64,000 nucleotides of DNA, taken from assembly GCF_023278565.1 (NCBI RefSeq), contig NC_064673.1, positions 434,001 through 498,000 on the forward strand, written 5' to 3'. This document shows positions 9,439-64,000 of the stretch, one piece after another (positions within the stretch are counted from its first letter, which is position 1; each line of letters opens with the position of its first letter). A program made the position numbers and the translations under genes. The notes beneath the pieces were generated by a model. The model had not been told where the DNA came from. It saw only the letters and a program-made list of their open reading frames with translations, and did not search any database. The DNA is from Colletotrichum lupini. Lineage: Eukaryota > Ascomycota > Sordariomycetes > Glomerellales > Glomerellaceae.

Positions 9439-9948
9439 GTTACGAAGGTAACTTTGTTTACTTTATTATTCGCCTTATTATCAATATTACGTAAGTAAAC
9501 TATATACTATATTAATTTACGATTTCTGTAGATTATTATAGGTATTGATTATGTAAGCAATACTGCTTATATAAGCTTACGTGAGTAATGGAAAGTACTA
9601 GAAGGTAACTAAATAATCTGGAATTTACTCGAGGCGGAATTACGTACTACGATTACGCATTTACTTACGTATACGCTTATTAATTATATTATAATTAATA
9701 AGTAATGGAATATTCTAGTAGGAGGTTTTTATGCCTATATATAGGCGTGTATTTGCCTACCTAGACCTTTCGTTAAGCAAGCAACTTCTTATATAGTAAT
9801 TCAACTATATTACTCTCTTTATTACAAAACCCTCTTTTATATACGCTTATTTCCCCTATATTTATATATTCTTGCTTCTATATGAATATTTACTTTTTAT
9901 ATTTTTTATAAGAATATCCCGTATTACTTCGTTAAAGCTATACGTGCT
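9439..9948 (+). repeat. RIP-spared island, possible solo LTR or unrelated insertion
   Basis: About 0.5 kb between two AAT-type microsatellites in which TG and CA dinucleotides are common again (for example ATTGATTATGTAAGCAATAC and GAGTAATGGAAAGTACTAG). It begins near TGTTACGAAGG and ends near TTACTTCGTTAA, which could be eroded LTR termini. A TATA-like CTATATATAGG sits at 9735-9745 with pyrimidine-rich sequence downstream, like an LTR promoter. There is no open frame. A solo LTR is my best guess, weakly held. Confidence 0.35.
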
Positions 9949-10195
9949 AGAAATAATAATAATAATAATAATAATAGTATAACTATATATATATATATAT
10001 ATTATTATTTATATTATTATTATAATAATAAGACTATATATTATTATAAAATATTGATATTATAATTATAAATAGTAAATTATATTGAATATATAATTAT
10101 ATAATAAGCTTATAATATATTAAAATAAGTTAATAATTTATTATTTTATTATTTATTAATTAATTTATATTTATAAATATTATAGAAATTAAAAC

Positions 10196-10390
10196 GATGA
10201 AAATATTCAAGAAATATTTGAGATATATTAAGGAAATATTTAAAATAGATTAAGGAAATATTTAGGAAATATTTAATATATATTAAGGAAATTTTTAGGA
10301 AATTTCTAGGAAATTTCTAGGAAACGTTTAGGAAATGTTTAAGAAACTTTTAGGAAATTTTTAGAAAATATTTAGGAAATATTTACGATT
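10196..10390 (+). repeat. Degenerate short tandem repeats of the AGGAAATATTT type
   Basis: About twenty imperfect units of roughly 10-11 bp built on (A)GGAAATATTT, GGAAATTTTTA, GGAAACGTTTA and GGAAATGTTTA. Relatives of the same word, often as the palindrome GAAATATTTC, occur singly or in pairs elsewhere in the block (near 528, 627, 1448, 2621, 3124, 11071 and 11640). Confidence 0.75.
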
Positions 10391-11933: not shown

Positions 11934-12027
11934 TAATTAGTTAAATTTAGCCGGGATCTATTAATATCTAAGTACCTATTATTATGCACGGGACTCTTAC
12001 CTTAACTAGGGGGTGTTATTATTAGTT
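11934..12027 (-). repeat. Right terminal inverted repeat of the outer element
   Basis: The reverse complement of this arm starts AACTAATAATAACACCCCC and follows the left arm for about 95 bp, diverging after the shared AACTAATTA. It is followed by TA at 12028-12029. Differences from the left arm include one A/C change in the C-run and a few transitions. Confidence 0.85.
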
Positions 12028-27900: not shown

Positions 27901-30624
27901 CCATGAATACCCACCGCTTACGGCTGGCGCTGTCCTTGAACTCTTCAACCTCCTCGAGGTTCTTCTCGTTGCCGCGCTCGGCCATCTGCTCGCGCGTGTC
28001 GAGGTTCTTGAACATGTCACCGCCGCCAAACGCGGATACGCCAGCTTCCGAACGGGCATCGGAGCCGTCCTGGCCGCCAAAGTAGCCGTTCTTGCCCTTC
28101 TCGCCGTACAGCAGAGGCGTGCCTCCGGCAGAGAGTAGGCGCTCCTTGGAGGCGGCAAAGGGGGTGTCTTGGGGAGTCAGGCCGTCGCCGTTGTCGGATG
28201 GTAGGGCATAGCGGCCAGTGGCCGAGGCGCCATCCGACAGCTGGGCGACCTCCATCCAGCATCGCTCACTGAGGAAGACACCGGTCGATCCGATGCGGAC
28301 CTCATTGGCGGGCCAGTGCCTGTCTTCGACGACGAGCTCGACACGCTCCCTCTCGGTGCCGACGAGGATGGTGTCCGAGTCGGCAAGGCCGAGGAACTCA
28401 CCAAAGGGGAGGAACAAACTAAAGTCTGCTGAACGCAGGCGCTGGCTGATCTCGGCAATACCAAACGTCTGCACCTGGGTGCGGACGCATTTGCTGTCAA
28501 ATTGATTGGCAATGCGTCGGTCGTTGGGCTTTAGGCAGAAGACAAAGTACGAGTTGCTGCTAGGGTCGGCAACAGACTTGGTGACGTTGTCCAAGGACGC
28601 GAGGAATTGGCCAGAGGCGCCCTGCTCCGAGGCCTGCAGCTTGTTGCCGCCCGACTGCGAGTTGCCCTCGCTGAGTCTGTCCAGTTCATCCTGAGCGGCC
28701 TCGTCCTGCTGCTGCTGGTACTGCTGGATGCGGCGCTGGTTGCGAGCGGTCCTGGTGGTCTTGCGGGACATGACACTGGGCGCTCTCGTAGGCTTGGAGC
28801 TGATGGTGGCCTGCATGACCGTCGACCTCTCCTTGGGGTGGGTGACGGTCTTGAGGGCCTCCTGGCCAAAGAGGCGGGCGACGAACTCGCTCTTGGTGGA
28901 GTTGATCATGTTGAGCAGATCACCGGAGATGACCTCGCCGTTCTCTTCGATGATGTCCTTGACGGGGTAGTCGACCTCGCCGGCAAAGTGCTTGACGGTG
29001 AAGAGGGCATTCGTGTTCTCGGTGTAAAAGTTGCTGCCGGGCAGTCTGGTGTTGGCGGAGCCGGGGGTGATGGCCGGGTTCTTGCCCTCGAAGCGCTTGC
29101 GCAGACTCTCGAGGAACTGCACGTCGGTGCGGTTCCTGCGCGTCTGGTCGTCGAGGATGCTGAGCAAGCCGTTTCCAGGCTTGAGCAGACCCCTGACGGC
29201 GTCCGAGTTGTCAAAGTAGCTCGTGGCCGCCACGCTGACCTCCTCGTTCTCCAGCATGTCTGCCTTGCGGTCGAAGAAGTTTTGCAGGGTGAGGTTGTAG
29301 AGGGCCTCGCAGGCGGCGTTATTGAGCAGCTGGTCGAGCGCCGAGTGAGTGGACGCTTGCTGGGCGAAGCCGGGGAAGTCGATAATGGAAATGGTGTTGG
29401 CAACGCTGTCCTCGGGCGCGCAGAGTCTCTGGTTGATGGACTCGACAATGTAGGCCACCAAGAGCGAGTACAGAGTGCGGGCGAGCTCGTTGGCGTGCGA
29501 GCGGGCGCCAGCGGGGTCCAGCATGACGGTGACTCTCTCCTTGTGGATCATCTTGGTCTTGTACGAGAGGGTGGTCTGCAGGTCCTGGGAGCTGACGCCC
29601 AAGAAGGCGGCGACAATGGTGAGGACATCCTTGTTCTTGACGGCAGTGACGGTCTGGGCACCCTCGTGGGAGAAACCGCCGCTGTCGTCACCTTGGGCTT
29701 GCGTGTCGGACGTCGTCTCGAACTCGAGCTGGCCAATGTGCAGAATCGTGGCCAGAACCTGGCAGATCTCGGCAATCTCGCTGCGAGGGAACTCGAGCTT
29801 CTTGAGGGCGTTCTTGAAAACCTGGAACCCTTCGGTGTCGTTGATACCGACCTTGAGCTGGGTGGGGTGACCCAGGTACTTCCACCTCTTTTGAGCAACG
29901 CCGGCCGGCGTCTCGAAGCCAAGATGGGCCTTCTCGGCCGCGCTGGTGCCGGCCATCAGGTAGTACAAAACATGAAAGTTACGCTCTCCCGTCGGGATAT
30001 CCGTGATACGGCTACGCTCGAGTCTGTGGTCGAGGAGCTTGGCACCAATCAGGACCGGGTTGGTCGTGGTAGCCGTGTCATACTGCAGCTCGTAGAACAA
30101 ACCGGCCTTGGAGGCTGTGGGAGTAGTGGCGGTCTTGGTCGTCGTCAAGGTATCAAAGACGTAGGCGGCCAGAGAGACCTTGGTCGACAGAGGGGTGGAG
30201 GACTTGCCGAGGAACGCGGTCAGGAGGTGGGATCGAATGGTTGATTTTCCGGAGCCGGATTCACCCCTATTCACGTTAGCCATGACCTTTGATATTGTCA
30301 GAATGTCACATACAAAAAGACGACGGATTGGTTCTCCGATCTGTGACCCAATCTGATCCATGCCCGGTCCGCAATGTCCTCGGCGCCGCCCATGGCGCTT
30401 CCCTCCTTGCCGCCATCAGGGCCCTTTGAGGAGGACGTGTAGGTGTTGAGAGAAATGAGGGCGTGAGACGAGAGGCGAGCGGTCGGCAGCGACACATGGA
30501 AACGACTGGCCAAGTGTGCCGTTAACTGCGTGTCTGATTGTGAATGTGCGGGTAGCGAGGGTAGAGAAGGTTGAGTGTGAGCGCCTCCGCCGCTCCCACC
30601 GATGGGAGGCAGGTTCATCGCCAT
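24929..30624 (-). CDS. Class V chitin synthase with myosin motor-like domain
   Basis: Membrane glycosyltransferase that polymerises UDP-GlcNAc into chitin at hyphal tips and septa. Exons on the minus strand, 30624-30314, 30266-25009 and 24960-24929, give about 1866 residues. An N-terminal myosin motor-like domain holds the P-loop GESGSGKST (residues about 105-113), which is created across the first intron. TASKAG stands at the switch-I position and DFPGFAQ at switch II. A cytochrome b5-like segment ([13 protein letters not shown]) and membrane spans follow. The GT2 catalytic core shows QIDADTVV near 1402, [10 protein letters not shown], and the chitin-synthase signature QRRRW near 1557. A C-terminal DEK-type domain ends [14 protein letters not shown], completed by the last 32-nt exon; without that splice the frame would end in a false tail. 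Its partner class VII gene lies head-to-head 5.1 kb away. Confidence 0.96.
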
Positions 30625-35711: not shown

Positions 35712-38700
35712 ATGGCGAGCGGACGCATGTCCATGTACTCGGTGGCCTCCGAGGGCATGGGAGGTCCTCGTGCCGGCCAACAACCCTCGCAGTTTTCCAC
35801 CACGACCCTCCTCAACGCCATTCACAATATTTACCTGTCATCCCAACCCTTCAAGTTGGACGCTGGCTCCAGCCTTGTCGTAAACACATGGCTCACCGCA
35901 GCACAGGCCGGACCGGACGGAAGAACAGGAGGCACCATAGATCCTGCCCTCGGTGCCAGAGCATGGGAACATGCTCGCCGCCGTGCTGAGGATGGCTGCA
36001 TCATTCTTGGGTAGGCTTCAAACCCCAATCAACAGACAACAATTGCTAATGCTGCGTAGTTCCCTTCACACATCGAGCCCCTCGGTCCTCACGCCTTTCC
36101 TCTCATCTCTGCCGCTCAACATCCCGTCATCCGTCTACAGGTCACTCGAGGCCATCCAGCCTTTCTTGAGATGCTCCACCCCCTACAACCCCTCCGCTTC
36201 CAGACAGGCTGCCCTCGGCGTCACCTTGACGCTCAACTTGACCGGTAACTTCCAGGGAGCCGCCATCGCCCTGTCTCAGGGCGGCATCGATACCGCAAAG
36301 GGCCTGCTCAATATCCCCTCTGAACCGGGGTACCGCGCCTTTGACGTCTTTTACTACCTATTGACGTCGGTCTCTACGCCCGCCGAGAGGGAGTTCTTGG
36401 GCCTCAAGCCCGCCTCCAGCTATGCCCTGCTTGCGAGATCCGGCACATACGACCCGCCCTCGTACCTCCCCACGGCTGACGATGCCGCTGCTGCCGATGA
36501 CTTTAGGACCGCCCTCAAGGACATTGGCATCAAGGGTTCTGCGTACCGCAACCTCATCTCTACCCTCGCCGGCCTGCTCAAGCTCGGCGACACGCTCGAC
36601 TACAACCTGGACGAGGACGTGTTTGACGAAATCTGCGAGGATGTGAGCGGCCTGCTGGGCATGGATCCCGAGACCCTTGCCACGCAGTGTACAACGCAGG
36701 ACCGGTCAACGCTGGTTGGCGGTCTGTACGAGGCGTTGGTCGACTGGGTCATCTCCAAGGCCAACCAGGCGATCTCCGCGCAGATGGCACGTATCAGAGA
36801 CGGTACCGAGTCCATCGCAGGTGGTGCCCGCACGCCCACATCCAACGGCGACGGCGACACCGTCTGCATCACCATCTTGGATGTCCCCGACCCAACCCTG
36901 GGCAAAGCCTTGACCATGCGTGGCATCTTTGACGACACCGTGGGCATCAACTCGGAGATGATTGCTGACGGCATCGAGGCGTCTCCCGCCGGCAGCACCG
37001 TCGTGCGTGAGATGCAGACGGCCATTGCGGAAGTTGGCCACGAGCTCGGCATCATGTCTGGCGCCGCCGGCAAGGACCGCCAGCACGCGCTCGAGAAGCG
37101 TGAAGAGGTTCTCGAGAAGATTGGACACTCTGCCGATGACGACGCGTTCCTCAAGAAGCTGCTCTTCCCGGTCTCCGGCCAGGGCATCAACCTCGGAGTT
37201 GCTGGACGTCTCGAGCTCGCAACGCTTCTCAGCTCCAGCCGCGTGTGGTACCACCTCTCGATCCACCCCACCGACGACTCTCCCGCCAGCTTGGCTGCTT
37301 TGCCTTCCGTCAACTCAGCCTGGTCAGCCGGCACTGTCTCCCGCCAGCTCCGTTCCTGGAGGCTGCCCGAGTGGGCCAACAGGCGAAACAAGAACCTGGA
37401 CTTCACCGCTGATTTCGACATTGACGAGTTTGTCCAGCGATACGCTGCGTTGGGCTGCCAAGACGGCCGCGAGGGCATCGAGACGTGGATCCTCGAGCGC
37501 GGATGGACCAACGGCGAGGTCATTGTCGGTAAGGAGCGTGTGTGGACACGTGAGAGCGCTTGGTGGGAGGCGGAGAGCATGCTCGACATGAAGCCCCTCG
37601 ATAACAACCTCCCCGGCATGGGCAATGTCCTGGCCGTGAACAACCTCGAATCAGGCTACTCGGCAAACGGCAGCGGCTACTTCCCAACGCCCATGCTGGA
37701 CACGACACCCAACGGAAGCCGTGATCACCTCATTGCCCACCAGCGCAATGCCAGCCAGGGCAACCTCTCCCAACACACCCTCGCTCACAATGCCGCGATG
37801 CGTGCTCCTTCCGTAGCTCCTTCGGGCATGCGTCCCGCGCAGAACGGAGACTACGGTCTCGGCACCAAGGGTGACACCTACAAGGGCCAAGTCTTTTACA
37901 ACAACGAGGGCGAGTTTGTCGGCCAGATGGACCCCGAAATTGCTGACGGCAAGCACGTCGAGGAGAAGACCATGGACAAGGACCGCCGTCTCTGGGTTGC
38001 CATTGTGTGGTTCTGGACCTTTTGGATCCCCTCGCCTGCGCTGCGCCTCATCGGCCGCATGAAGCGTCCCGACGTGCGCATGGCCTGGCGTGAAAAGTTC
38101 ACCTTGGTCTGGTTCATCGTGCTCATCAACGCTGCTATTGTTTTCTGGATTATCGGGTTCGGCAAGCTCCTGTGTCCCAACTTTGATAAGGCCTGGGATA
38201 GCACGGAAGTCGGCACGCACCAGGGCGAGACGGATTTCTACGTTAGCTTCCGCGGTGGCGTGTACGATGTCTCCAAGTTCTGGAAGACGCAGCACTCCGA
38301 TACCAACATTGAGACGACCAAGGCCAACATGATTCAATTCGCCGGATTGGACATGGACGACTACTTCCCGCCTCCCCTTACTCTGGTGTGCCCCGGTCTC
38401 GGAATCGCCTCGTCCACCGCACTCCAGGCCAACACCACCCCCGAGTACACCATTGGTATCCACAAGTCTGGCTCTCTGGCCGATGACCGTACGAGCGCGC
38501 TCGGCGACTCTGATTGGTACAGCAAGAAGCTGCTGCCGCGCATGAAGGAGTTTTACAAGGGCGATCTCGTCTGGGACAAGGGCGACGTCAAGTCGGACGG
38601 CCAAGACAACAGCCACATGTGGGTGATTTACAACGGCGGCGTCTACGACTTTACAAACTACTACCACACCCAAGACGTCTTCAAGCAGGTCGACACGTAC

Positions 38701-41164
38701 AAGTTCCTTAACACCAAGATGATGAGCGCTGTCGAGAACAACCCGGGTGAAGACATTACCGACAAATGGAACACCATCATCAAGGCCGCCGCCAGCAACT
38801 CGACCGAGAACACCAGCGTCCAGAACAGTCTCAATTGCGCAAAGAATTTGTTCTATAAGGGTATTCCAGACTTCCGCTACTCCGCTAGGTGTCAGGTCAA
38901 CAACTACATCATGTTGGCCATGACGATTATTCTCTGCGCCGTCATTCTCATCAAGTTCTTGGCTGCTCTGCAGTTCGGTTCCAAGCGTCGCCCCGCTCCT
39001 CAAGACAAGTTTGTTATTTGCCAAGTACCGGCCTATACCGAAGGCGAGGACTCGCTGCGAAAGGCGCTCGACTCTTTGACGGCCCTTCAGTACGACAACA
39101 AGCGCAAGCTCATTTGCGTCATTTGCGACGGTGTCATTGTCGGTGAAGGCAACGATCGTCCTACCCCCAAGATTGTCCTGGATATTCTCGGCGTTGACCC
39201 CAAGGTTGACCCGCCCGCGCTGCCCTTCAAGTCTGTCGGCACGGGCAGCGAGCAACTCAACTACGGCAAGGTGTACTCTGGTCTGTACGAATTCGAAGGC
39301 AACGTCGTCCCCTACCTCGTCATTGTCAAGTGCGGCAAGGAATCCGAGCAGAGCAAGGCCAAGCCCGGTAACAGAGGCAAGCGTGACTCCCAGATTCTGC
39401 TGATGAGCTTCCTCAACCGCGTCCACCACCGTTCTCCCATGTCCCCGCTTGAGCTGGAAATGTTCCACCAGATCAACAACATCATCGGCGTGGACCCCGA
39501 GCTGTATGAATATCTCATGATGATTGACGCCGATACCTGTGTCCGGGAAGACTCGCTCAACAGACTGGTTTCCGCCTGTGCCAACGACGCCAAGATTGCC
39601 GGTATCTGCGGTGAGACTGGTCTGCAAAACGATGACAAGACCTGGTGGACCATGATTCAAGTCTACGAGTACTTCATCTCCCACAACCTGGCCAAGGCTT
39701 TCGAGTCTCTCTTCGGATCCGTCACATGTTTGCCTGGATGGTATGTACCCTCACTTCTCACTTGCAGGACCAAGCTAACCAGTCAGTTTCACAATGTACC
39801 GTCTGCGCACCGTCGACAAGGGCAAGCCGCTCATTATCTCGGACAACATCATCCGCGACTATGCCGTGTGTGACGTCGACACCCTCCACAAGAAGAACCT
39901 GCTGTCTCTTGGTGAGGATCGTTACCTGACGACGCTCATGACCAAGTACTTCCCGTCCATGAAGTTCAAGTTCATCCCCGACGCGTACTGCCAGACTGCC
40001 GCCCCCGAGTCGTGGAGCGTTCTGCTGTCCCAACGTCGTCGCTGGATCAACTCCACCATCCACAACCTGTTTGAACTGATGAAGCTCAAGGAGATGTGCG
40101 GTTTCTGCTGCTTCAGCATGCGCTTCATCGTCTTTATTGATCTCTTTGGTACCATTATCCTCCCGGCGACGACCTTCTACCTCGGCTACCTCATCTACCT
40201 CGTAGCCAGTAGGACCGGACAATTCCCCATGATTTCCATCATTATGCTCGCCGCGGTGTACGGTCTCCAAGCCCTCATCTTTATCCTGAAACGGCAGTGG
40301 CAGCACATCGGATGGATGATCATCTACATTCTCGCCTTCCCCATCTACAACTTTGCGCTCCCCATTTACTCCTTCTGGAACCAGGACAACTTCTCGTGGG
40401 GTAACACGCGTATCGTCATTGGAGAAAAGGGCATGAAGAAGCTCATCGCCGTGGACGACGAAGGCTTCGACCCCCGCAGCATCCCGCTCCAGCGCTGGGA
40501 CGACTACGCCATGATGAACAACCTCCCCGGCCGCCGCGGCGGCTACATGGAGAAGGCCGACATGGGCTACGACGACCAGTACGAGATGGACGAGATCCGC
40601 TCCGTCTACTCGTCCGTCCGCCAGGGCTCCGTCCTCACGGGCATGAACCGCAACAACCACTACGTCCCGCCCCAGTCGCCCGCGCCCTTTGGCGGCATGG
40701 CCCGCGCCTCGGGCGCCACGAGCCCCTACCACCAGGACCAGCACATGGCCAACCGCCAGTCCATGGTCTCGCTCGGCGCCCACGACATCCACCGCGGCCA
40801 GACGCCCTACCAGGACTTCCCCAGCAGCCGCCCGAGCGTCTCCAACCTCCGCGGCCAGGCCAGCGTCTCCCCCGGTCTTGGCGTCGGCAACAACCGCTCG
40901 CAGTCGGCCCTCGGCATCAACCGCCAGCAGGCCGGCGCCGCGCAGTCGACGTCGTCCTTCGACTTCCAGCGCGGCAACATGCAAGGACCCGACGACGGCA
41001 TGATCATTGACGCCATCCAGGGCGTTCTGCGCGAGGTCGACCTCGACACGGTGACAAAGAAGCAGGTCCGCGCGCTCGTCGAGCAGAGGCTGCAGACGGG
41101 ACTCGTCGGCGAGAGGAGGACGTTTATGGACAGACAGATTGACAACGAGCTGGCCAACATGTAG
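35712..41164 (+). CDS. Class VII chitin synthase with degenerate myosin-like domain
   Basis: Chitin polymerising membrane enzyme, paralogue and usual genomic partner of the class V enzyme. Exons 35712-36010, 36060-39740 and 39787-41164 give about 1785 residues. The N-terminal myosin-like domain aligns in outline ([25 protein letters not shown]) but lacks the P-loop, the feature that separates class VII from class V. The cytochrome b5-like segment reads [15 protein letters not shown]. The catalytic core has MIDADTCV near residue 1254, [14 protein letters not shown], and QRRRW near 1409. The second intron interrupts the conserved LPGCFTMYR just before these. A DEK-type C-terminus ([17 protein letters not shown]) ends the protein, preceded by a long Gly/Ser/Gln/Arg-rich linker. 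The ATG at 35712 (CACCATGGCG) is the first after 760 nt of AUG-free leader. Confidence 0.95.
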
Positions 41165-48954: not shown

Positions 48955-50303
48955 TCAAACCGTTGCCATTCTCGTCTTCACCATGGCCAACTCGGAACTC
49001 TTGGCCCATGTGCCGCTCGGGGTCTGCCGGTAGCACACAAGCTTGCCATCATCACCAGTACTGGCCAGGATCTGTCCGTCATCGTCAAACCCGACGCGCC
49101 AGACGGGCGTGCGGTGGCTGTCGAGCTTGGCGACTTCCTTAAAGACGTGCTTCACTTGGCCCGGCTGCCCCGAAAAATGCCGTTCCGCATGCGAGCCAGA
49201 CTTTGCCAGGCTTGCGCTGAGTCCCGATTGATGCTGCTGTTGCTGTTGCTTGTCGTTCGTCTGCCCTCCCGCCTTTGCCGATGCTTGCGCATAGTGATTT
49301 TCGTGCCTGGTGAGCTCCGTCGTGGCCCACGTCTTGCCGTCGTCGGCCGAGTGCGGCGTGTCGATGCGGAACACGCGCACGCAGCCGTCCTGGCACGCCG
49401 TCGCGATGGTGTCGTACCCTCGAATGTTGCCCGTCGCCCACGCCACGTCGCGCACGAGGCCGCGGTGGACGCCCACCTCGACGGCAAGGTAGAACTCTCG
49501 TTGTGTCTGCGCCACGCCATACGAAGTCGCAATCACGTCCCTCGAGCGGTAGATCTTGACCGACGACATGCCTGCCACGACCAGCCCCAAGGAGTCGCTC
49601 GCCACACCCGCCCGCAGGGCGTTGTAGCACGGGTCCAGGTTCGGGTCGAAGCGGACCTTGAAGCTAATCTCCTCGCCGCGGCTCGGCTTGGGGCAGATGC
49701 TCAGCTCGTCGATTTGTGTGTATTCCGACATGTTTTCGGGCTGTTCATTCTCGTAGACCACCAGACGGCCCTCGGTGGAGAGCAGGGCGAGGTACGTGTG
49801 CCGCGTCTCTTCGTTATGTTTCATGGAAAAGGAGCGGTAGGGGTATTTGGGAGAGCGCATTTCGTAGGCGGCTTTGCTCGTCGTCGCGCGGCTGCTGGCG
49901 CTGAATCGGCGGCCCGGTGCTGCTGATGGGTCTTCCGCCCACAGCTTGAAGCGGCCTTCTATGCCGAGGGAGGCGATGAGGTTCGGGTAGACTGTCGGGG
50001 GGAGCCATTGGAGCTGGGGCGAAGAGGCAGAGGTCAGCGATTTCGTTTTGCTTGCGGCTCCTGTGTTCATACCTCGAGAATCTCGCCGCCGTGGGCACCC
50101 CATGTATCGCAGTGGTGCCAGACGCCGTCCTTGTGCCGGTTGAAGACCTTGATCTTGCCGTCTACGGACCCTGTCGCGCACCGGTCGCCGTAGGCGTTGA
50201 AGGCGACGGCCTGGACGAGGTCCTGGTGTCCATGCTGGAGGTTTAGGTCGAATCCGGTCTTTTCTTCGGCAATTGCAGGTACTTCGTGAGGGTACGTCGC
50301 CAT
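48955..50303 (-). CDS. seh1: Nucleoporin SEH1 (WD40 protein)
   Basis: Beta-propeller subunit of the Y-shaped nuclear pore subcomplex and of the vacuolar SEA/GATOR2 complex. Minus-strand exons 50303-50073 and 50013-48955 give about 429 residues. The N-terminus has a typical SEH1 first blade: GHQDLVQAVAFNAYGDRCAT followed by SVDGKIKVF. The second blade (GGEILELQWLPPTVYPNLIA) is joined by the intron. Later blades show VRDVAWATGNIRGYDTIATA and TPVWRVGFDDDGQILASTGD. An insertion rich in Gln, Ser and Ala (about 335-375, including QQQQQHQ) separates the last blades, as in other filamentous ascomycete SEH1 proteins. Without the intron the frame would be continuous with a false upstream extension; the ATG at 50303 starts a natural propeller protein. 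Confidence 0.93.
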
Positions 50304-50748
50304 CTTGCGCCGAATTGGGTGATGGGGAGCTGGTTACAGTACTCGTACAACGAGGTCGTGGTGTTGTAGTTGCGACCGAGTTGAAGGTCGAGCGAGGGAG
50401 CTCTGCCCCGCGCATTTAGCTCCGGTACGTACCGATCTGGTGACAACCTCAACTTCAGTCAATAATACAAGCAACAGAGGGGCCAAAGGCCAATTTACAA
50501 TTACAAAGGCGTCTAGAGATTGGAGAATAATGAGTATTGACGGATTTCCAAGTTAATTAAGCCTGAGATACAGACAATTGATCTCACGACAACCCAAACC
50601 ATGTCTATGATGTATCAAGACATAGTGACACAGAACAAACAGTCCAAACACATGCTCCAGGGTCTCAATCAGTCATTGAAAGTGTTGAAGAACAATGCAA
50701 ATTCAAGGCTATGCTGTGTCATTTCATCTAAGTCAAATACCACCCATG
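50304..50748. other. SEH1 promoter and 3' flank of the Zn2Cys6 gene
   Basis: A 445-bp region upstream of SEH1 and downstream of the Zn2Cys6 regulator; all reading is on the minus strand. No gene or clear promoter motif. Confidence 0.55.
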
Positions 50749-52496
50749 TTAATTACCCCCTTCAACGTTGATGCGCAGCTCCTGTAGCTTCTCATAGAGC
50801 GCCGGGATGCCTTTCCCAAACGCAAGCGAATGCGGTACATCCTTGAGGGGATGGACCGGTCCGTAGCTGACATTCTCAACAGTGACCAACAAGTTGCGCA
50901 CAAAGTTGCCGTCCCAGAGATTTTCTCGCTGCGGGTAGTTTCGCAGCACCCCAAGGGCTTTCCCCTGGATAACGGGATCTTGACAGGTAACGAGTATAAA
51001 GTAGAGGGGCGGTATAATCCCGATATCGAGCGTGAACGACCGAGGCATTGCCCCAGATTCGCGCTGCTTGGCAACCAGCCCTTGGTGTAGCAGGGCAGCT
51101 AACGACACGAGCTCCGCGTGCTGGGCGACAACGTCGGGCGATTGCTGCCTCTGGTGCGGCTTCTGATGCAGCGTCTGACATATCAGACGCGCGCACTTGT
51201 AGTGGAGCATGTCGAGGCAGATAGAGTGGTGCTCTTCGGTACCGCTCGCGGGGGCTTGGGGCCTTTCCATGAAGCGTTGGAAGAGACCCGTCAGGTGATT
51301 GCCCCGTTCCATGAGGATCTCGTGCTGGCGGTGCGGTACGGGGCGAGCCCAGAACTCGTCGTCGCCTTGTTGCTCCTTTGTCAACCAGACCAGGGCAAAC
51401 ACGTCACGCGTGTATTGCACGATGGCTCGATGAGCATCCGCTATGGTCTCGAACTCGTCCAGCAGCGTGTCGTCGAGCTCTCTCCCCTCATACAGCTTGA
51501 TGGCGATAACGGGCTTGAAGTTCTCGGCAAAGAGCGCGCATGAGATCTCCCAGGTGGCGAAGAGTCTCAGGATGTAGTCCATTGACAGGACGTCTTCCGA
51601 GGGGTCTGCGCTAGCATGAGGGGGCACAGCGTCTCGCAGCTCGTTGAGCTTGCTCATGGGAAGACTCTCAATGATGCGCAGGCCATTCGAAAGATGTGTC
51701 AGTGCTGGTCGCCAGTTATTCCGCAAGGACTCGATGCAGACAAAGGACACGCAGCAGAGGAGAGTGACGGTGATCCTGTCCTTCATCGGAACGTGGGCAT
51801 AGCTGGAGAGCTTGGACATGGCCGTGCCGTACTGCTGGATAGTGAAGATTTCGAGCTCGCGGGGAGGCGCCTCTCCGCCACGAGGAGGAGCTGTCTGATA
51901 CATGTGATGGGCAGAGCCGAGGGCGACAATGGCGTGCTTCACGGCGTCGTCTGAGTGGCTTAGCTGGGTTGCGAATCGGCTCCAGAAACTGGTGAGATTC
52001 GTGACATGGTTGGAGAGGCCGGCCTCTGCCATGCGGCGGAAGCGGTGGAAGTAGACGCGCTCCGTGTGTGTACCGTCAATGTCGGCAACGAGGGGACGCA
52101 GCAATCGAGGGTTCTGGCTCTCAGACAAGACTCGGATGAGTAGAGCCTGGGGAACAAGAGCATCGCTGTCTCTTGGCCGAACTGGCAGGCCTTTATCGTA
52201 GCCGTCGCAAGCCCGGCCTGTTGACGTGCAACGCGAACAAGCGGGCCGCTCCTCTCCGCACTTGATGCGTCTGATTCTAGGGGTCGAGTTAGTATCGGTG
52301 GGGGGCCAAGCACAAGTTGAGGTCTTACTTGCTGCCACCGAGTCAGTTAAGGTTGATCACAGCGGTTCCGAGAAACTTACCAAGTCAGACAGCCGGTCCG
52401 CACTTTGGGCTTACTTGCTCTTTTTCGCTTCGCGGTGATGATTGCCTTCTCTAGCGTAGGCGTGGCAATGCCGCTTTCCTGTGATGTAGATGCCAT
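50749..52496 (-). CDS. Zn2Cys6 transcription factor with a 3-nt microexon
   Basis: Fungal binuclear zinc cluster regulator of about 548 residues. Minus-strand exons 52496-52381, 52331-52329 (three bases, CAA) and 52276-50749. The zinc cluster, near residues 36-63, fits C-x2-C-x6-C-x6-C-x2-C-x6-C: CLTCKIRRIKC, then GEERPACSRC and TSTGRAC. It is preceded by basic KRKRASKPKVRTG, a likely nuclear localisation signal. The second Cys and the following Lys are assembled from exon 1, the microexon and exon 3. The rest resembles the Fungal_trans_2 type of regulatory domain (RVYFHRFRRMAE, DDAVKHAIVALGSAHH). Its targets are unknown. The MFS gene lies upstream on the same strand; nothing in the sequence proves it is a target. 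Confidence 0.87.
52329..52331 (-). other. Predicted 3-nt microexon (CAA)
   Basis: Bounded by GGTGGCAG before and GTAAGACC after, on the minus strand. The left intron (52332-52380, 49 nt) has donor GTAAGT and a CTGAC-like branch site. The right intron (52277-52328, 52 nt) has a TACTAAC branch site and acceptor CCCCTAG. Including it joins ACT TG|C AA|A ATC, reading Thr-Cys-Lys-Ile. Skipping it makes TG|A, a stop. Keeping the right intron makes TGC AAG TAA, also a stop. Confidence 0.85.
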
Positions 52497-53580
52497 CCGT
52501 GACGAAGCATCCGGCAGATCTAGTAATCCCGGGCTCTGTCTGTTTATTTAGGGCTGAGATGGGTTGCGTAACGGCGCGATGGGCTGATCAGTCATATCAA
52601 TCATGGAGTAATATGACGGGAATCTCCTCCTCCTTGTCCATGCCCGGTTGAGTAGCATTGGCGGCGTGCTCGATGCCAAGACAAGATCAGGATGCCAGTC
52701 CGAGCCGTCGTTGAAGTTGATGTTGACTATAAGGGAGCAAAGCTTGTGGGCTGGACAGTAGACTTTCGGGCGAAGGAGGCTACCCGCGGTCAACCGTAAC
52801 GTGCAGGCTAATTATATTTGATGAATGGGGCGAATCCAACTCAAGGTTGACGCGACTCGGTCATTATCCGTTGTCGTTACTGGCGTGGAGTTTCTTCCGT
52901 CTTTATTTCTGGCCCCACCAACCTCGCCGACCCTCCGTCGAAGGCCGGTGTTCGGTAACTTAGCAACGGACTCGATAAATGAAAGCTGAAGAACTGCGAC
53001 CAGATCAGGAGGTGTGTTTGTGTTTGAATCCGGGTAGTTGGGACGAAGACAAGAATCTATACATAGCATGCCCTGTACTCCGTAGAGCTATTCCCGTTGT
53101 GGCCTAGAATATTGCTTAGTTGCTGCCCACCCCGCAATTCAGCGTTGCTCAACAGCAAGTCAGCTACAGTTCGTGAATCATCCAATGTATATTCACCCAG
53201 CATCTCGAATACACCACGACTGACAGCCCTCATATACCCCTTCAGGTCCATTCCTGTCACCAGCCAGCAAGCGCCCCTTTGGGGGTCAGGTCAAAACTGG
53301 CTGAGTGGTGGAGTGGTTGAAGTCCACGAACAGCCTAATCGGTGAAGGCTCAGAGGTCCCGAGTTCGAGTCGACAAAATCCCAGCATGTGCACCAAGAGA
53401 TGTAGCCCCCATTCGCCACCGGGGGGGTGAACTCTTTTTAGTTCTACCTCAAAGTGAGACTGTCCAATTGTAGTGTAGATAGGGCCGCGCGATGGCATAA
53501 CAACTTATTATTACCTACCCTGATCTGTATATATTGAATTCATGTCCATACTCTAATCGTTATCATTACTTTACCCTCAT
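52497..53580. other. Intergenic region, Zn2Cys6 promoter and MFS 3' flank
   Basis: About 1.1 kb holding the promoter of the Zn2Cys6 gene and the 3' flank of the MFS gene. No protein is recognised. The right half contains a tRNA-like sequence with Pol III-type A and B boxes and a downstream T-run. Confidence 0.55.
53298..53438 (+). ncRNA. tRNA-like / SINE-head-like Pol III candidate
   Basis: TGGCTGAGTGG at 53298-53308 matches the tRNA A box. GAGTTCGAGTC at 53361-53371 closely resembles the B box (GGTTCGANTCC), 52 nt further on. A T5 run, a Pol III terminator, lies at 53434-53438. The T-arm stem does not pair and no cloverleaf or clear anticodon stem forms, so it is not a functional tRNA as read. 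It may be a tRNA pseudogene or the head of a tRNA-derived SINE. Confidence 0.35.
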
Positions 53581-55630
53581 CTACGCGCCCATGTCTCCTG
53601 GCCTCAGCTGGCTGACACGCTGCTTGGCCCGCTGCTGCTTCTTGTTCTTCTTGATGTTCTTCCACTCCATAAACAAGGCGCAGATGAGCGTCGCGAGAGA
53701 CAGCCCCATACCGGCCAAAAAGATGCGCGTGCAGGCGTAGTTGTACGCTCGGACAACCACGTCCAAGAACTGCGCCGGCACAACAGTGTGCAGGTTGGTG
53801 GCGCCAGTGTTGACGATGGCTTGCGCAGACAGCCCCGGGATGCCCGAGAGCTCCGACACGAGCAGGTTGCTGAGGATGGACTGCCCAACGGAGACGAAGA
53901 CTGCGGCTCCCAATTGCTGGGCAAAGAAGCTGATGGAGACGCCGGTCGACACGTCCTCTTTGGGGAGAACCGCCTGTACCGCGAGCCCAACGGTCTGCAT
54001 GCCGAAGCCCAGGCCGAATCCGGTCAGGAACTGGTAGCCGATCCAGTGGCCGGAGCTGATACCTGGTTGGAAAGTGCTCATCAGGCCCAGGCCCACGGAC
54101 ATGATGCAGGGGCAGAGGATCATGGATGGGACGTAGTATCCAATCTTTTGCGTCGCACCACCGGAGATGATGGAGGATACCACGATGCTGAGGACGAGAG
54201 GGATGGTGTAGATTCCCGAGTTGACCGGGTTGGCTCCCTGCACAGCTTGGACTGGAGGTTGTCAGCACGTGTTCATTAATGTTGATCGCATTACTTACAC
54301 CAGATGGGCAGGTAGTACACGGCCAGCATCATCGAGCCGGCCAAGAACAGCATGAAGAAGGCACCCGCCAGCATGGTTCTTTGCTTGATGATCCTGACAG
54401 GCACAGTGGCGGTCTTGGGCATAAAGACCTGCACGGCAGCGAAGGCCATGAAGCCAACGCCGAAAACGACAAACAAGGCGATGATGCGGCCGTCGTTCCA
54501 CGCGTACTCTGATCCGCCCCACTCGAGCGCCAGAAGGAGGGATACCACGGAGGGGACGAAGAAGAACGTTCCCAAGGGGTCGAGGCGCTTAAAGTGTTGA
54601 AACAGCGTAGCCGGCTCTTGAGGCTGCCGCCTGGGAGCCTTGAGCATGAAGAACAAAAAGACGAACGCCACGCCTCCAATAGGGAGGTTAATGTAGAAGC
54701 ACCATCTGCGTCTCGTTAGTTGCGCCACAGCCCATAGGCTTCTGAAGCACATACCTCCATGTGACGTTGCTCGTGAAGCCACCGCCAACCAAGGGTCCAA
54801 TGACAGACGCCAGACCGAACACCATGCCAAAGATGCCTTGGAACATGGGTCTCTTGTGCAGCGGGATCATGGGAATCATGACCATCATCGCTCCCGTAAA
54901 GATGCCAGCCGAACCAACACCGGCAATGGCTCTGCCCGCAATGAGCACCGACGAGCTCGGCGCCACACCGCAGATTAGCGAACCAATCTCAAAGATGAGA
55001 ATGCTTCCAAGGAATGCTCTACCGTTGTGTTAGCATGCTTACAGAGTCAGTGACCATCGAGACTCACCCCCTCAGGCTGTAAAACTTGTAGATTCTACCA
55101 AACACTAATTGCGAGGCCGCAGTCGTGAGCATGTACGCTGAACCGTACCAGCCGATATCGCCAAGACTTTGAAACTCATCAGTGATGCGTGGGATGGCCG
55201 TGGCAATGATTGTGCGGTCCAGAGCAACGAGAAACATTGCTACAAAGTTGGACAGAATGACGAGCCAAAAGGTAATGGTTTTCGGCTTGAAGTTTTCCTC
55301 GGCTTCATCGAAAACGGGCGGGGGCCCCGTGGATGGTCCCCCTTCGATATCGGCCTTTTCATCGACGTCGTCGTCGACGTCTGGCTGCTTGGCCACATCG
55401 TTATGGCTCTCGTTTGCTGATATCGCCGAGGACTGAACTGTTGCCTTTTCTGTTGGTCTCTCGCTCTCAATTTCGGGTTCGATGGGCTTCTCCTCGGATG
55501 ACTTCTTCTGCTGCCGCTCGTCGCTTTCTCTCGGAGTCAAGGTCCGCGTGGAGCTGTTGGACGTCTCCACCTCACGGGTCTTCTCTGAGGCAGTATCGCC
55601 CTCGACGGGCCTCGCACCTGCGTCCGCCAT
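53581..55630 (-). CDS. MFS exporter, 14-span DHA2 (drug:H+ antiporter) type
   Basis: Plasma- or vacuolar-membrane major facilitator of the fungal 14-transmembrane drug/toxin exporter group. Minus-strand exons 55630-55068, 55018-54755, 54705-54299 and 54251-53581 give about 634 residues. A long, charged, disordered cytosolic N-terminus (about 115 residues, rich in Glu, Lys, Ser and Asp) precedes TM1. The first span region carries [17 protein letters not shown], then [20 protein letters not shown], with the loop 2-3 motif [11 protein letters not shown] completed at the first intron. After TM5 is [12 protein letters not shown], the signature of this group. The C-terminus is basic ([12 protein letters not shown]). 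Its substrate cannot be told from sequence; relatives export secondary metabolites or antifungals, but no biosynthetic gene lies in the window. It is divergent from the Zn2Cys6 gene at 56988. Confidence 0.92.
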
Positions 55631-56987
55631 GTTGAAGCTGTCGTGAGGATTTGGGCAGCTGGAAGATTTCGAGTGAAGCCACGAAATGTAAACAAAGAAT
55701 GTAGCACGCGCAAATCTTTTGGGGCTTGGCAGCGGGAAAATATTGCTTAATGGAACGGGGAGGGAGCTAGAGGTTCGTCCGGACTCTCGAGCGCACGGTC
55801 AGATCTCAAGTTACAGATCACGTTCGGACCACGAGCTCGTCTGGCGGAAGAGACACTAGGACGGGGTCATGGAACTAAGAGGCGAGGATCGCTATATATG
55901 GCGAGACTGGCCATCGCCGCCATTCTGCCCTGCCTGCTTATCTTGGACGCGGTGGCCGGCAGCATAGTGTGACAGGCAGAGGGCGCGACGCGAAGCCACG
56001 CAAGGCCATCATAGCCCGCATAGGAATGTCTCACAAGAAGAAAGTCATGACGAGATCCAGAAGCCGACTTGTCAAGGCCGATGGGGATGTCCAGAGAAGG
56101 ATGCTTTGCCCAGTTCTCGCCCTTGTCTTTTGGTGGTGTACGGACATGGCGTTGCAGTTGCTCGGGCACCGGAGGTCGATGTTGTGTCCGGGCAAAGGGT
56201 GGAGCTTGCCCTCTTCCGGCATAGCGCCGGGTGCTCGGGTATCTCACAGCAATCTCCGGCTTACCTAAGGGTCTCTACTACGCACTTCAGCTGAAGGAGC
56301 TTGGGCCATTTTCGACCTCTTGCAGGCGCGGGCCACGGGGAGGCCAGCACCGATGGGTCCCCCTTCGGTCCCGGGCGGGTAACGTAGCTGACCGCAGTCC
56401 CCGCTTCCCCTGATGCTCATCTTACAACCATTCAGTTTCTTTTGTAGTCTCAACACGAGAAGGCACGAGAGGCCCAAGTTAAGCAAAGAGCCTCAATTCT
56501 TAGCACCGGACTGACCAAGTTGACAGTCATGTTGTTCGTCTCATAGGCTAGACGTCCCCGTATGTGACTTTTGCATACTCTCTGTCATACCACCTCGATT
56601 GTTTTGTACGAATTGTGATCCGGATCGTCCGTCTCTAAGCTCTTGCCTGCTCGTTCCTGGCCATCTACACTGCCCGCATACAGGATACGGCACCTCAACC
56701 TATCCCGGGACCGTCTTGTACACCATCACGTCGATAGCGTCTCGGTCAATAATACAGCTTCCTCCTCCGATCCTGGCAAGAAGTTTGGCGGCAGCATCTG
56801 GAAGTGCTTCTTCATTGGATATCACTCTTTAGACTCACATGCTGCATCCCGTCAACGTTTCGCCTGCAAACGTCACCCCTCGGATCCGAGTTGGGAACAA
56901 GCCAGCCGACGAACCACGTCTGCAAGGTGGCTGACTGTCGCGTCGTCGTTGCATCTCAAGAGAGAGGCATCCACATAATACTGAACC
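55631..56987. other. Divergent intergenic region, MFS and second Zn2Cys6 gene
   Basis: A 1.36 kb bidirectional promoter region between the MFS start (minus) and the Zn2Cys6 start (plus). Short frames on both strands are unconvincing. No binding-site pair strong enough to report was seen. Confidence 0.5.
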
Positions 56988-59589
56988 ATGTCGTCGGGAG
57001 AAGCCCAGCTCCCACCCCCGCCGAGGGCAGTTCCTCCACCCGCACCCGAACCCGACCCCATGGCAGCGATGAAGCTTACCAGGGGGACCTCGTGTGTGCT
57101 GTGCCAGCAACGAAAAGTCCGCTGCGACAAGAACAAGCCGTGTGCCAACTGCGTCAAGGCCAGGGTAGAGTGTCGAATAATACCACCACAGCCGCCCAGA
57201 AGGCGCAAGAAGCGTCTTCAGGAACGCGATCTCGTCGACCGCCTCAAAAAGTACGAATCCCTCTTGGCGGAGAATGGCGTCAAGTTCGACCCCATCGCCG
57301 CCGAGCTCAAGGCCGGCGATAGGAACTCGACACACCTTGACGACGACCACATGCTCGACGAGGATGCCGACCTCGCAAACGACTTTGAGGGGCTAAAGAC
57401 CTCGCCCGAGGGGAGCACATCCCCTTCCGTGGCAGGGAGTCGGAGATCACAATCTGATAAGTGCGCAGGCCCACTCCCTTACACTTGATCGTCAGCTAAC
57501 TCAATCCCAACTAGGCCATTTAGCAAATGGTTTCCCTTTCACAAAGAGGTGTGTTTTCTTACCTTGCTTTGCCATCCGCACATCTAACTTGGATTCAGTT
57601 TCGAGCTAGCGAGGAGCTGTTGCGAGACTCGTCAGAAGACGAGGTTGACGGCTCAACCATCCATCACGCCTTTGACAAGATGTACGATAACCAGGACGGC
57701 TTTCCATTCATCGTGGGAAGTCGAAACGCCTCCGTGACGCATCTCCACCCATCACCTATCCAAATCTTTCAACTGTGGCAAATCTACATTAACAACGTCA
57801 ACCCCTTACTCAAAATAACGCATGTGCCAACGGTACAGGGCCTTATCATCGAGGCCAGCGCCAACCTCGAAAAGATCCCAAAGAGCGTCGAGACGCTCAT
57901 GTTTGCTATTTACCTCATGGCAGTCACCTCCATGGAAGACGTCGACGTGGCAAAGATGTTCAACGAGCCAAAGCCTACCGTCCTGTCAAGGTTCCACACC
58001 GCACTTCAGCAAGCCTTGGTCAACGCAGGCTTCATGCGGACCAGTGATACGATGGTCCTCCAGGCTTACATGCTCTACTTGGTAAGTCATCACACAACAT
58101 TTGAGGAAGCACGCTGACAAGCTAGATTGCCGTTCGCATGTTTGTCGACCCGCGGCAAATATTCTGTCTCGTTGGTATCGCCGTGAGGATAGCCCAACGG
58201 ATGGGCCTCCACCGCGACGCTGCCGCATTCGGCCTGTCGCCGTACGAAGTCGAGCAACGCCGGCGGCTGTGGTGGACCATTGTAGGCTACGACCGCCGGA
58301 TAGGAGAGATGACGGGGTCGACCGTGACGGCCCTGTCTACCGCCGCCGACTGCAAGCTGCCCCTCAACATCAACGACACAGACCTCCACGTCAACGGCAA
58401 GGACGCCCCGACCCCGCATCAGGGCGTGACGGAGATGCTCTTCGTCCTCATCCGGACAGAGCTGGCCATGGCCATCAGCAGCGACACCTTGCGCGACGGT
58501 CAACGCCACAGCGACAAGGACAAGGACGCCGGCGGCGGCGGAGGCACCGGCACCAGTACCGGCCCCCAAGCCCCGCCGCGCCCCATCTCAACGGTGCGCA
58601 TGGCCGGCCAGGACCAAGTCTACACCCTTGACGGCTTCTTCGCGCACATTGAAGGCACGTACCTTAAGTGGTGCGACCCCAAGATCCCACTACACTTCTT
58701 CACCCTTACCATGACGCGACAATCGCTCTGCAAGATGCGCGTCATCTCGTTCCTCGTGCGCATGGGCAACGGCGAGGCGACGACGCTGGCGGAGCACGAG
58801 CGCGACACGCTCTTCCTCGAGGCCGTCCAGATGATTGAGTACGACAACGTCGTCCAGGCCGCCGACAGCCTGCAGGGGTACAAGTGGTACACGTACCTCC
58901 ACTTCCCGTTCCCCGCGTACATGTTCTTGGTGACGGAGCTGCGGCACAGGTTGACGGGCACCATGGTCGAGCGCGCGTGGGACGCCATCGCCGAGAACCA
59001 CGAGCGGAGGGGTCTGATGAGCACGCTGCACAGTCCCATGCACATTGCGTTTGGCAACCTGTTCATCAAAGCGTGGGACGCGCACGCGGCTGGGCAGGAG
59101 CAGATTGGGAAGAAGCCGGTGCAGGAGCCCATGTGGATCACGAGACTTCGGCAGCGGGCGGAGAAGATGGGGAAGAAGCAGCACGGGGGTGGGGGTGGGG
59201 GTGGACGCCGGCCCGGGCCGGAGATGGGCATGGGCGGTCCCGGCGTCGGTGTTCCACCGGGCGGCGGCGTTTCGCAGCAGGCGGGTGGCGTGGGTAGGGC
59301 AGCGCCGGTGAACAACACCGCGTCGCAGCTCCCGATGCAGCAGATTCCGCAAAACATGATGATGACACCGCCGTCCGTGACGGCGGGCACGCCAGTGATG
59401 AACCCGCCTCCGTCCGAGGCCGACGTCATCGACATGGACTGGAGCTACCTTATGCAAGGATACGACATGGACACGTACGGGGCCTTTGGAGGCGGTTTCG
59501 GTGGGTTTCCCATGGGCGGGAACGGCATGGTTGGCGGCGGACCCGGCATGATGGGCAACCCGGACGGTAACAACATGTTTGGAAATTAG
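56988..59589 (+). CDS. Zn2Cys6 transcription factor with fungal-specific regulatory domain
   Basis: Binuclear zinc cluster regulator of about 817 residues. Exons 56988-57460, 57515-57548, 57599-58081 and 58126-59589. A Pro-rich N-terminus is followed by the cluster CVLCQQRKVRC and DKNKPCANCVKARVEC (C-x2-C-x6-C-x5-C-x2-C-x6-C, about residues 36-62), a basic linker RRRKKRLQ and a short coiled-coil-like RDLVDRLKKYESLL. The middle is a fungal-specific transcription factor domain: RIAQRMGLHRD, then EQRRRLWWTIVGYDRRI. The C-terminal 130 residues are low-complexity, with a Gly run and Met/Pro/Gly/Asn repeats, and may act in activation. It converges on the glucoamylase gene, with 106 bp between stops. 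I do not recognise a named orthologue, and it should not be taken for the amylase regulator AmyR on position alone. Confidence 0.9.
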
Positions 59590-61673: not shown

Positions 61674-62049
61674 GGTGATCGTGCCTTTACTTCCTCAGTC
61701 GTTGAAGTGTTCGGTGAAGGTGCCGGACTAGAGCCTTTCGGGTCGACGATGGGATGGGAAACTCTTATATCCCAAACATAGCCCCCGAGACATAGTCGTA
61801 TAGCAAAGTGCGGGCCTAGCTGGGCAGTGGGCACAGAACAACAATAGTAGCTCTCGAAGTTTATTACTGGCATCATCGTGCTGCAGACCCCTGCGTGTTC
61901 ATCCCAAATCGAACGCGGACAGGGATGGCGTCTCTTGGGTAGCATTGGGGATAGGGGATCGTCGTGGATCCGTCAATTCGTTCTAGAAGTCTAATGCCCT
62001 GAGTTGCTTTGGCAGAGTTTCTACGGCAGACTGCAAGAGGCACTCCGCT
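61674..62049. other. Glucoamylase promoter region
   Basis: Ordinary DNA between the glucoamylase start (minus) and the right AT-rich block. Only about 370 bp of promoter stands between the gene and the transposon-derived sequence. Contains the TATA box below. Confidence 0.6.
61762..61770 (-). promoter_or_regulatory. TATA box of the glucoamylase gene
   Basis: ATATAAGAG on the minus strand (context GGGATATAAGAGTTT), 89 bp before the ATG at 61673, a usual distance for secreted-hydrolase genes of filamentous fungi. No other TATA-like word lies between it and the start. Confidence 0.5.
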
Positions 62050-64000
62050 AAAACACTTTTTTTATGTGTTAAAGTAGAAATCGTATTTTACGGTCACCCT
62101 ATTACCTAGGATAGGGTCTAGACTAGTATAATAATTTATAAATAGGGGTTATAGAGATTTATAGCTTAAGAAATATTTTAATTTTATAATATATTAAACC
62201 GTATAGTAGTATATAAAATCGCATAATATTATACTTTAATATAAAAGTTTTTCTTCTTTTTATAACTTTATTATAAAAATAAGTATTACTTTTTACCCTC
62301 TTATAAATAAAAATTACTTTTTATTTAAGTTATTAAACTAATAGCTCGTTTATAAATATTATAATATAGATTTATAATAACTTCTAGTCTTTATATAAAA
62401 CGTTATTAAACTAATCGACCTTACGATACCTCTTTATAAAGCTATTTTAAAACGACTAATTAATAATAATACTTATATAAGCTCTACCCTTTTTATATAA
62501 TAAGAACGTATAAACGTATAAGCCTTAATATTAATAAAATCTCTTTTTATAAGCTTAAAAAAATAAAAACGAAGTATTTAATAAATAAAAAAGGAGCTAA
62601 AGTAATTATTAATAATTAATATTTCTATTATATTATATAATATATCCTTTTTTAAAAACGAACTTAACGGTTTCTAAGTAACGACTTATATTAACGTCTA
62701 AGTTATTAAGAAGTTTATTAAAAAAGTTTAATTTAATTACTTCTTAACGTTTATTTTATATTAAAATATAATACGATTTATTATTTTATATTTTATAATA
62801 AATTAATAAATTTTTTTAATAGAGTAGATAGTATTTCTAATTAATATAAAGAATTTTTATAATATTTCAGAGTATTATAAAGTAGTATACGAAGCTATAA
62901 GTTTAGAAAGATTCCTCTCTAAAACTACGATCTTATATAATAAAAAAAATTATTAACTTTTTATTATTTTTTAAACTAAAATTAAGTCGCTAGTTATTAA
63001 ACCTTAGTTAATAAAAAAAGGAAAAGGTTATATAAAGCTAATTATAACTAAAACTTTAAATAAAACGATATATAAAAATGTTCTAAAAACACGGCTTTTA
63101 ATAAGTATTAATATTAAACTAACGATAAAAATTAAAGAGAAATTGTTAGTTAAGTAAAAAAAGAAAATCGTTAAGAAGGAGGTAAAGGCTAAGAAAAAGG
63201 TTAAAAAGGATAAAAACGATAAGAAAGATAAGATTATAGTAGTTTAATAAGAAAATAAAGTTTACGATAGTAAATAACTTAGTATATTATAAGGATAAAA
63301 ACGAGTATTCTCGTTAATAAATAGTTTAGAGTAAATTATAATTATATTTATAATTCCTCTTTATCCTTAGTATCACTTATAATTACGAAGCTATTTAATA
63401 TTTTAAGATTAATTCTAAAGTTTTTAATTTTTATTTAACCTATATAATACTGCCCTATAGTTTACTAAGTAAAATAACTTCTAGTTAGAGCTTATTATAT
63501 ATATACTATTTTAAATAAATATAAAGATATTAATACGCTTTAAAATAAAAATAATTAGCCTCGCTAAACTTCGTATTTTTAGTTAATATAATTAGGGAGC
63601 CCTTAATAATTAAGGTATAAATTTATAAAGTAGCTTAAAGAAAATATGCGTTTAGATTATTATTATTTTAAATAGTATTTAATAATTATTAAACTTAGTC
63701 TTAGTTAATTAGCTATATAAAGTCTTATATAGTTCGTAACGTAGGTTAATAATATAGTTACTATAGCTAACTAAAAATAACGTAAGGGCGACCTTTTTAA
63801 TAACGAATTTAATAAGAGTTCTAAATTTATACGAAGTTAATAAAATTAGAACGAATTAGTAATATATATATAAATAGAAATATAATTTAGTTAGAGAGTA
63901 TATTTATATAAAATAGCCCTTAGAACTTAAGTAGTTAGAAGTATTTTTATAAATATAAGTATACTTATATATACTAAGATATATATTACTTACCCGCTAA
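62050..64000. mobile_element. Second RIP-degraded AT-rich block, cut by the window end
   Basis: From about 62050 the sequence becomes very AT-rich with few CA or TG dinucleotides and stops in every frame, as in the left block. The border carries AAAACAC, a T-run and GTGTTAAAG, a small inverted repeat that may be an element tip, next to a TA. A purine-rich stretch at about 63135-63235 (AAG/GAA-rich) would encode a Lys-rich tail on the plus strand if repaired, like the C-terminus of many transposases; this is only suggestive. The far end lies outside the window. Confidence 0.7.

What the first reader, a model, noticed from the sequence alone, without database searches (positions are those of the whole stretch)
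52277..52381. A 3-nt microexon completes the zinc cluster of a Zn2Cys6 regulator
The two canonical short introns (49 and 52 nt, both with fungal-type branch sites) flank just CAA. Only its inclusion gives the conserved C-x2-C-x6-C. Skipping it creates a TGA at once, and retention of the second intron gives TAA. The regulator's DNA-binding domain therefore depends on splicing three bases, which may happen by ordered (stepwise) intron removal because exon definition is impossible at this size. Automatic gene finders would very likely misannotate the N-terminus, for example by reading the second intron as coding. Mis-splicing could act as an off switch.
Basis: partly seen in the sequence, partly recalled or inferred. 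Interest (0 to 1): 0.75.

Follow-up and report, generated by a model that had tools for sequence, protein, structure and literature searches.

The report
Three-nucleotide exon completing a DNA-binding domain
A gene-control protein of a plant-associated fungus can only form its DNA-binding zinc cluster if the cell splices in an exon just three letters long; traces of the same tiny exon appear in related fungi, where public gene models often miss it.

Summary
On the minus strand a 3-nt exon (CAA, 52331-52329) lies between introns of 49 and 52 nt with standard fungal splice signals. Among the one- and two-intron paths enumerated, only this one gives a Zn2Cys6 cluster. Skipping, or retaining either intron, stops translation inside it. 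Shuffles give such an exon with good signals in 2 of 20,000. The genome is very probably Colletotrichum lupini (contig length). Two paralogues have the same layout: another 3-nt CAA and a 4-nt GCAA; fifteen others have only the downstream intron. Deposited relatives carry traces of a skipped exon: 26 of 281 retrieved proteins read C-x2-W where kin read C-x2-C-K, as removing CAA from TGCAAG would give; W is the only residue seen in a one-residue gap. The nine lineages looked up cover eight Sordariomycete orders and one Leotiomycete. So this is an old, probably constitutive microexon that annotation often misses. No RNA and no orthologue DNA were available, and the proposed off switch is untested. 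Closest precedents: Xlr2 of Trichoderma (20 nt) and the 1-nt exon of Fusarium CYP621A.

The parts
52381..52496 (-). exon 1, coding part, from ATG to the TG of Cys39
   Evidence: RASKPKVRTGC recurs in relatives
52332..52380 (-). intron 1, 49 nt, GTAAGT...GCAG
   Evidence: same place in paralogue L032, one base earlier in L060
52342..52346 (-). likely branch site CTGAC of intron 1 (TTAAC just upstream is an alternative)
52329..52331 (-). 3-nt microexon CAA: third base of Cys39 and first two bases of Lys40
52277..52328 (-). intron 2, 52 nt, GTAAGA...CTAG
   Evidence: the same position holds the only intron of the cluster in 15 paralogues
52288..52292 (-). branch site CTAAC of intron 2
50749..52276 (-). 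exon 3: rest of the zinc cluster, Fungal_trans_2 region, stop
52207..52391 (-). span that encodes the Zn2Cys6 cluster, Cys36 to Cys63, both introns included

Best explanation
The gene encodes a Zn2Cys6 regulator of the PF11951 (Fungal_trans_2) type. A widely shared intron lies inside the codon after the second cysteine (TGC-AA|A). In this gene and some relatives a further intron lies exactly 3 nt upstream (TG|C), which leaves a 3-nt exon. Shown: the sequence, the uniqueness of the path among those enumerated, the shared intron position, two more such exons in the genome, and protein traces in other fungi. Inferred: both introns are recognised as short introns and removed one after the other, since the splicing machinery could hardly sit on both sides of 3 nt at once; removing either intron first makes the other an ordinary one. 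Inclusion is most likely constitutive, and skipping or retention ends translation inside the cluster. The exon probably arose before this gene and paralogue L032 parted.
For: One splice path restores the cluster; strict chance rate 2 of 20,000. Zn_clus 32 bits against a cut-off of 21. Paralogue L032: TG|GTTTGT..ACAG|CAA|GTAAGG..TCAG|A; paralogue L060: T|GTAAGC..ACAG|GCAA|GTGAGT..CCAG|G. Of 20 genome places matching an acceptor followed by the second half of the cluster: 3 microexon, 15 one intron at the intron-2 position, 2 intronless. Protein traces: 26 of 281 retrieved proteins have W in place of CK; all 26 one-residue gaps are W. Twenty of the 26 are among the 120 hits listed by the first search and six came with the third, both made with CK-form queries. 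Fourteen further proteins read S-K before the second half, as AG-CAA-G gives if the end of intron 1 is read. Tree: window-gene clade 100/99, L032 joins it at 96/94.
Against: No transcript was seen, here or for the paralogues. L032 intron 1 has a weak donor (GTTTGT), and no CTRAY/TTRAY branch site was found in L060 intron 2. The protein traces come from gene models, not from orthologue DNA. 129 of the 281 proteins read CK or CR, and whether they have a microexon, one intron or none is unknown; two-residue gaps of other kinds occur in 4 (YR, HR, IR, DR). L032 sits on a long branch. A wrong reading through intron 2 still reaches 24.8 bits for Zn_clus, so a Pfam hit alone does not prove the model.
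Confidence: 0.88

Rival explanations
1. Regulated switch (not exclusive of the exon itself): inclusion of the 3 nt varies with conditions, so that skipping or intron retention turns DNA binding off, perhaps leaving a product without the cluster from a downstream start such as the Met at 52032.
For: Skipping and retention stop inside the cluster. A 20-nt microexon in the Zn2Cys6 domain of Xlr2 is reported as glucose-dependent in Trichoderma virens (PMC11121469, abstract and passages). A deposited relative starts at that Met (P0003).
Against: No RNA evidence here. The short deposited product looks like gene-finder output. Plain necessity explains the conservation as well.
Confidence: 0.12
2. Nested intron (stwintron) or one long 104-nt intron: CAA is intronic and the mature mRNA skips it.
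For: 26 deposited relatives read as if this path had been chosen. Stwintrons exist in fungi (search listing and abstracts).
Against: In this gene it gives TGA at codon 39. In relatives it removes the second cysteine and the lysine, while close kin keep CK (P0037 W against P0028 CK, sister rows 100/100).
Confidence: 0.03
3. Artefact: an assembly error, or a decayed gene in which the pattern arose by chance.
For: No transcript support was available.
Against: The 548-aa frame is intact; three Colletotrichum relatives are 70, 78 and 82% identical over 99-100% of it; two paralogues have the same layout; strict chance 2 of 20,000.
Confidence: 0.02

Closest known systems
Xlr2 microexon, Trichoderma virens (PMC11121469; abstract and passages seen)
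   Same: Microexon inside the Zn2Cys6 domain of a fungal regulator; by the passages its upstream exon ends in TG and the microexon begins with T, so that intron too cuts a Cys codon; missed by annotation.
   Different: 20 nt rather than 3; encodes PCRRCE with two cysteines; a PF04082 rather than PF11951 regulator; RNA evidence of glucose-dependent use.
Single-nucleotide exon of Fusarium CYP621A (PMC12940212; abstract and passages seen)
   Same: Ultra-small exon in a conserved motif of filamentous fungi, conserved among species, wrong in all but one of the deposited transcripts the authors list; inferred from relatives.
   Different: 1 nt, in a P450 gene, supported by 18 SRA reads; reported from Fusarium.
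Plant microexons of 1-15 nt (PMC8831610; passages seen)
   Same: Conserved, often missing from annotation; some copies lost the flanking introns.
   Different: Plants; supported by RNA-seq and RT-PCR.
Stwintrons (search listing and abstracts only)
   Same: Two neighbouring U2 introns that need consecutive removal, in ascomycetes.
   Different: There one intron lies inside a splice element of the other and no exon remains between; here 3 coding bases remain.

Membership tests
Zn2Cys6 (Zn_clus, PF00172) regulator | C-x2-C-x6-C-x5-12-C-x2-C-x6-8-C (spacing recalled; score from Pfam) | tested here: met
   CLTCKIRRIKCGEERPACSRCTSTGRAC, 32 bits against 21; among the paths enumerated only the one with the microexon has all six cysteines
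Fungal_trans_2 (PF11951) regulators | Pfam score over the cut-off | tested here: met
   24.8 bits against 21, residues 135-422
Microexon | Exon of at most about 30 nt between two introns with standard splice signals | tested here: met
   3 nt; GTAAGT/GCAG and GTAAGA/CTAG with branch sites
Microexon | Present in mature mRNA | not testable with these tools
   no RNA reads available
Microexon | Conserved in relatives | tested here: inconclusive
   met for paralogue DNA in the same genome and supported by W-type and SK-type protein traces, but no orthologue DNA was available
Switch-like microexon as in Xlr2 | Condition-dependent inclusion | not testable with these tools
   no RNA data
Stwintron | Internal intron interrupts a splice element of an external intron and the whole is removed | tested here: not met
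   removing the whole 104 nt gives TGA at codon 39

The most novel reading that the evidence does not exclude
The 3-4 nt exon is an old element shared by two regulator clades across Sordariomycetes and Leotiomycetes. It marks a place where an intron was repeatedly gained or shifted just upstream of a fixed one, a standing intermediate of intron sliding, and its inclusion is used as a regulated gate on DNA binding.
Probability: 0.1. Interest if true: 0.8.

Novelty: new member of a known kind. Interest (0 to 1): 0.5.

Why it matters
It adds a 3-nt exon, and a 4-nt relative, at the heart of one of the largest fungal regulator domains. It gives a simple sequence sign (C-x2-W followed by the second half of the cluster) for finding gene models that lost their DNA-binding domain. 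It also gives a series of genes (no upstream intron, 3 nt, 4 nt) on which the origin of neighbouring introns and the order of splicing can be tested.

Tried and rejected
Single-intron readings: 109 stay open, none restores the cluster. Stwintron reading: rejected (TGA). The stwintron paper PMC5639578 was searched for six terms, zinc and microexon among them: no occurrence. ARAGORN (bacterial code) found no tRNA in the window and Rfam nothing over its cut-offs in 50000-56500. The second protein search, with a W-form query, added no new W-type protein. The pattern for TG|GT exon ends gave 7 places, and by eye only the window gene and L032 show a zinc-cluster start ending there. The pattern for T|GT ends gave 12 places; L060 is among them, and the other eleven were read by eye but, apart from L077 and L083 (the latter = L045, intronless), not solved for introns. 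L089 and L090 matched the acceptor pattern by accident and are intronless. L062 first gave false solutions; with more sequence it has one long intron at the usual place. The tree left out L088 (short frame) and L077, and cannot say whether L060 gained its upstream intron separately: L060 groups with single-intron paralogues L061, L048 and L050 at 100/100, inner order open. Literature: the listings showed no report of this 3-nt exon; some listings were cut (20 of 476) and the library holds only open papers.

Full report
The finding was checked on the minus strand. Exon 1 (coding 52496-52381) ends ...GGC-TGT-CTG-ACT-TG. Then come intron 1 (52380-52332, 49 nt), CAA (52331-52329), intron 2 (52328-52277, 52 nt) and exon 3 (52276-50749). 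The spliced product has 548 residues and the cluster CLTCKIRRIKCGEERPACSRCTSTGRAC.

The model is not one choice among many. One search tried GT or GC donors with AG acceptors (single introns of 30-400 nt, pairs of 35-200 nt each): 109 single-intron paths stay open, none has the cluster; one two-intron path has it. In one search the inside of the 104-nt stretch was shuffled 20,000 times with the outer splice sites kept: 390 shuffles held some inner exon of up to 39 nt that restores the cluster, and 2 did so with good acceptor, donor and branch signals. Pfam gives Zn_clus 32 bits and Fungal_trans_2 24.8 bits, both over the cut-off of 21. A wrong reading through intron 2 still scores 24.8 for Zn_clus over profile positions 7-34, so domain searches need not reveal the error.

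The genome. The closest deposited proteins are from Colletotrichum, those of 95-99% identity from C. costaricense and C. cuscutae (C. costaricense belongs to the acutatum complex). A C. lupini protein is listed with a longest contig of 7,882,614 bases, the exact length of contig C3 of this genome, so the window is very probably C. lupini.

Paralogues suggest how the exon came about. A pattern for an acceptor followed by the second half of the cluster found 20 places. Read by sequence alone, 15 have one intron at the position of intron 2 (14 after TGY-AA, one, L077, after TGT-GA), 2 are intronless and matched by accident, and 3 have a microexon: the window gene, L032 (CAA, C9:3608296) and L060 (GCAA, 4 nt, C10:2832486). 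Three further paralogues outside that pattern (L035, L039, L043) also read as one intron at the same place. Intron 2 is therefore the common and presumably older intron, and intron 1 the addition. In L060 the upstream intron lies one base earlier. In the tree (40 rows, 633 columns) the window gene lies with relatives from several Sordariomycete orders (16 rows, 100/99), L032 joins that clade (96/94, but on a long branch), and L060 lies with single-intron paralogues (100/100). One gain before the window-L032 split is the simplest reading for the 3-nt cases; for L060 a second gain, or a common origin with losses and a one-base shift, cannot be told apart. A paper on novel intron positions made by sliding or tandem duplication in Drosophila (PMC2891723) was seen only in a search listing.

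Protein traces in other fungi. If exon 3 begins with G rather than A, skipping CAA turns TGC-AAG into TGG, so C-K becomes W and the frame stays open. This is what is seen: 26 of 281 retrieved proteins have W there, and W is the only residue found in a one-residue gap (26 of 26); one further protein, P0045, has no residue in the gap. Two-residue gaps are CK in 122, CR in 7 and something else in 4. Twenty of the W forms were among the 120 hits listed in the first search and six in the third; the search made with a W form added none. Lineages were looked up for nine of them, two by genus only: Calosphaeriales, Microascales, Amphisphaeriales, Xylariales, Sordariales and Glomerellales for kin of the window gene, and Helotiales (Leotiomycetes), Diaporthales and Hypocreales for kin of L032. 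Fourteen further proteins read S-K before the second half, as AG-CAA-G would when the end of intron 1 is read as coding; three S-R cases are not counted. The structures of the 129 CK or CR proteins are unknown. In the first search none of the 20 best proteins has the full cluster; in the third, by my reading, 2 of the 23 best (all named Colletotrichum) do, P0178 and P0180. In the nearest kin the deposited protein P0003 starts downstream of the cluster and runs on into the neighbouring WD40-repeat gene.

How it works. In fungi short introns are thought to be recognised as units (general knowledge), so a 3-nt exon need not be bound as an exon. Whichever intron leaves first, the other then has a normal neighbour: after intron 1 the donor context is TTGCAA|GTAAGA; after intron 2 the acceptor context is GGCAG|CAAAATC. 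Which goes first is unknown. Skipping or retention stops translation at codons 39-41. That this serves as an off switch is possible, given Xlr2 (PMC11121469, abstract and passages), but nothing here tests it.

Known work. Xlr2 is the nearest in function and place; the 1-nt exon of CYP621A (PMC12940212, abstract and passages) is the nearest in size and in the way it was found; plant microexons (PMC8831610, passages) show similar conservation and misannotation. In Aspergillus nidulans about 159 of 520 regulator genes were judged to need re-annotation, 124 of them predicted to code for Zn2Cys6 or fungal-specific domains (PMC8396895, passages). I found no report of this 3-nt exon in the searches listed under Tried and rejected. 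I file it as a new member of a known kind: an unusually small and apparently old microexon in a DNA-binding domain.

Noticed in passing
L060 with L092 (G000:C10:2831200-2834600): Paralogue with a 4-nt microexon GCAA at nearly the same place, upstream intron in another phase (T|GC); skipping it would shift the frame.
   Followed up: partly
L032 (G000:C9:3608107-3608322): Paralogue with its own 3-nt CAA microexon between introns of 73 and 102 nt; only 2 of its 23 best deposited Colletotrichum hits show an intact cluster (read).
   Followed up: yes
window 48958-52032, minus strand: Deposited kin (P0003, P0012) join the truncated regulator to the adjacent WD40-repeat gene, probably an annotation error that goes with the lost N-terminus.
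   Followed up: partly
window 24986-30415 (-) and 35941-39870 (+): Two diverging chitin synthase reading frames about 5.5 kb apart; the first has a myosin-head match over the Pfam cut-off, the second one just below it.
   Followed up: no
window 1-12000 and 62001-64000: AT-rich blocks (17-26% GC) flank a gene block of 54-63% GC.
   Followed up: no
window 57087-57200 and 58126-59586, plus strand: A Zn_clus match followed by a Fungal_trans match, probably a second Zn2Cys6 regulator about 5 kb away.
   Followed up: no
window about 53300-53390, plus strand: Stretch that looks like a serine tRNA by eye; neither ARAGORN nor Rfam reports it.
   Followed up: partly
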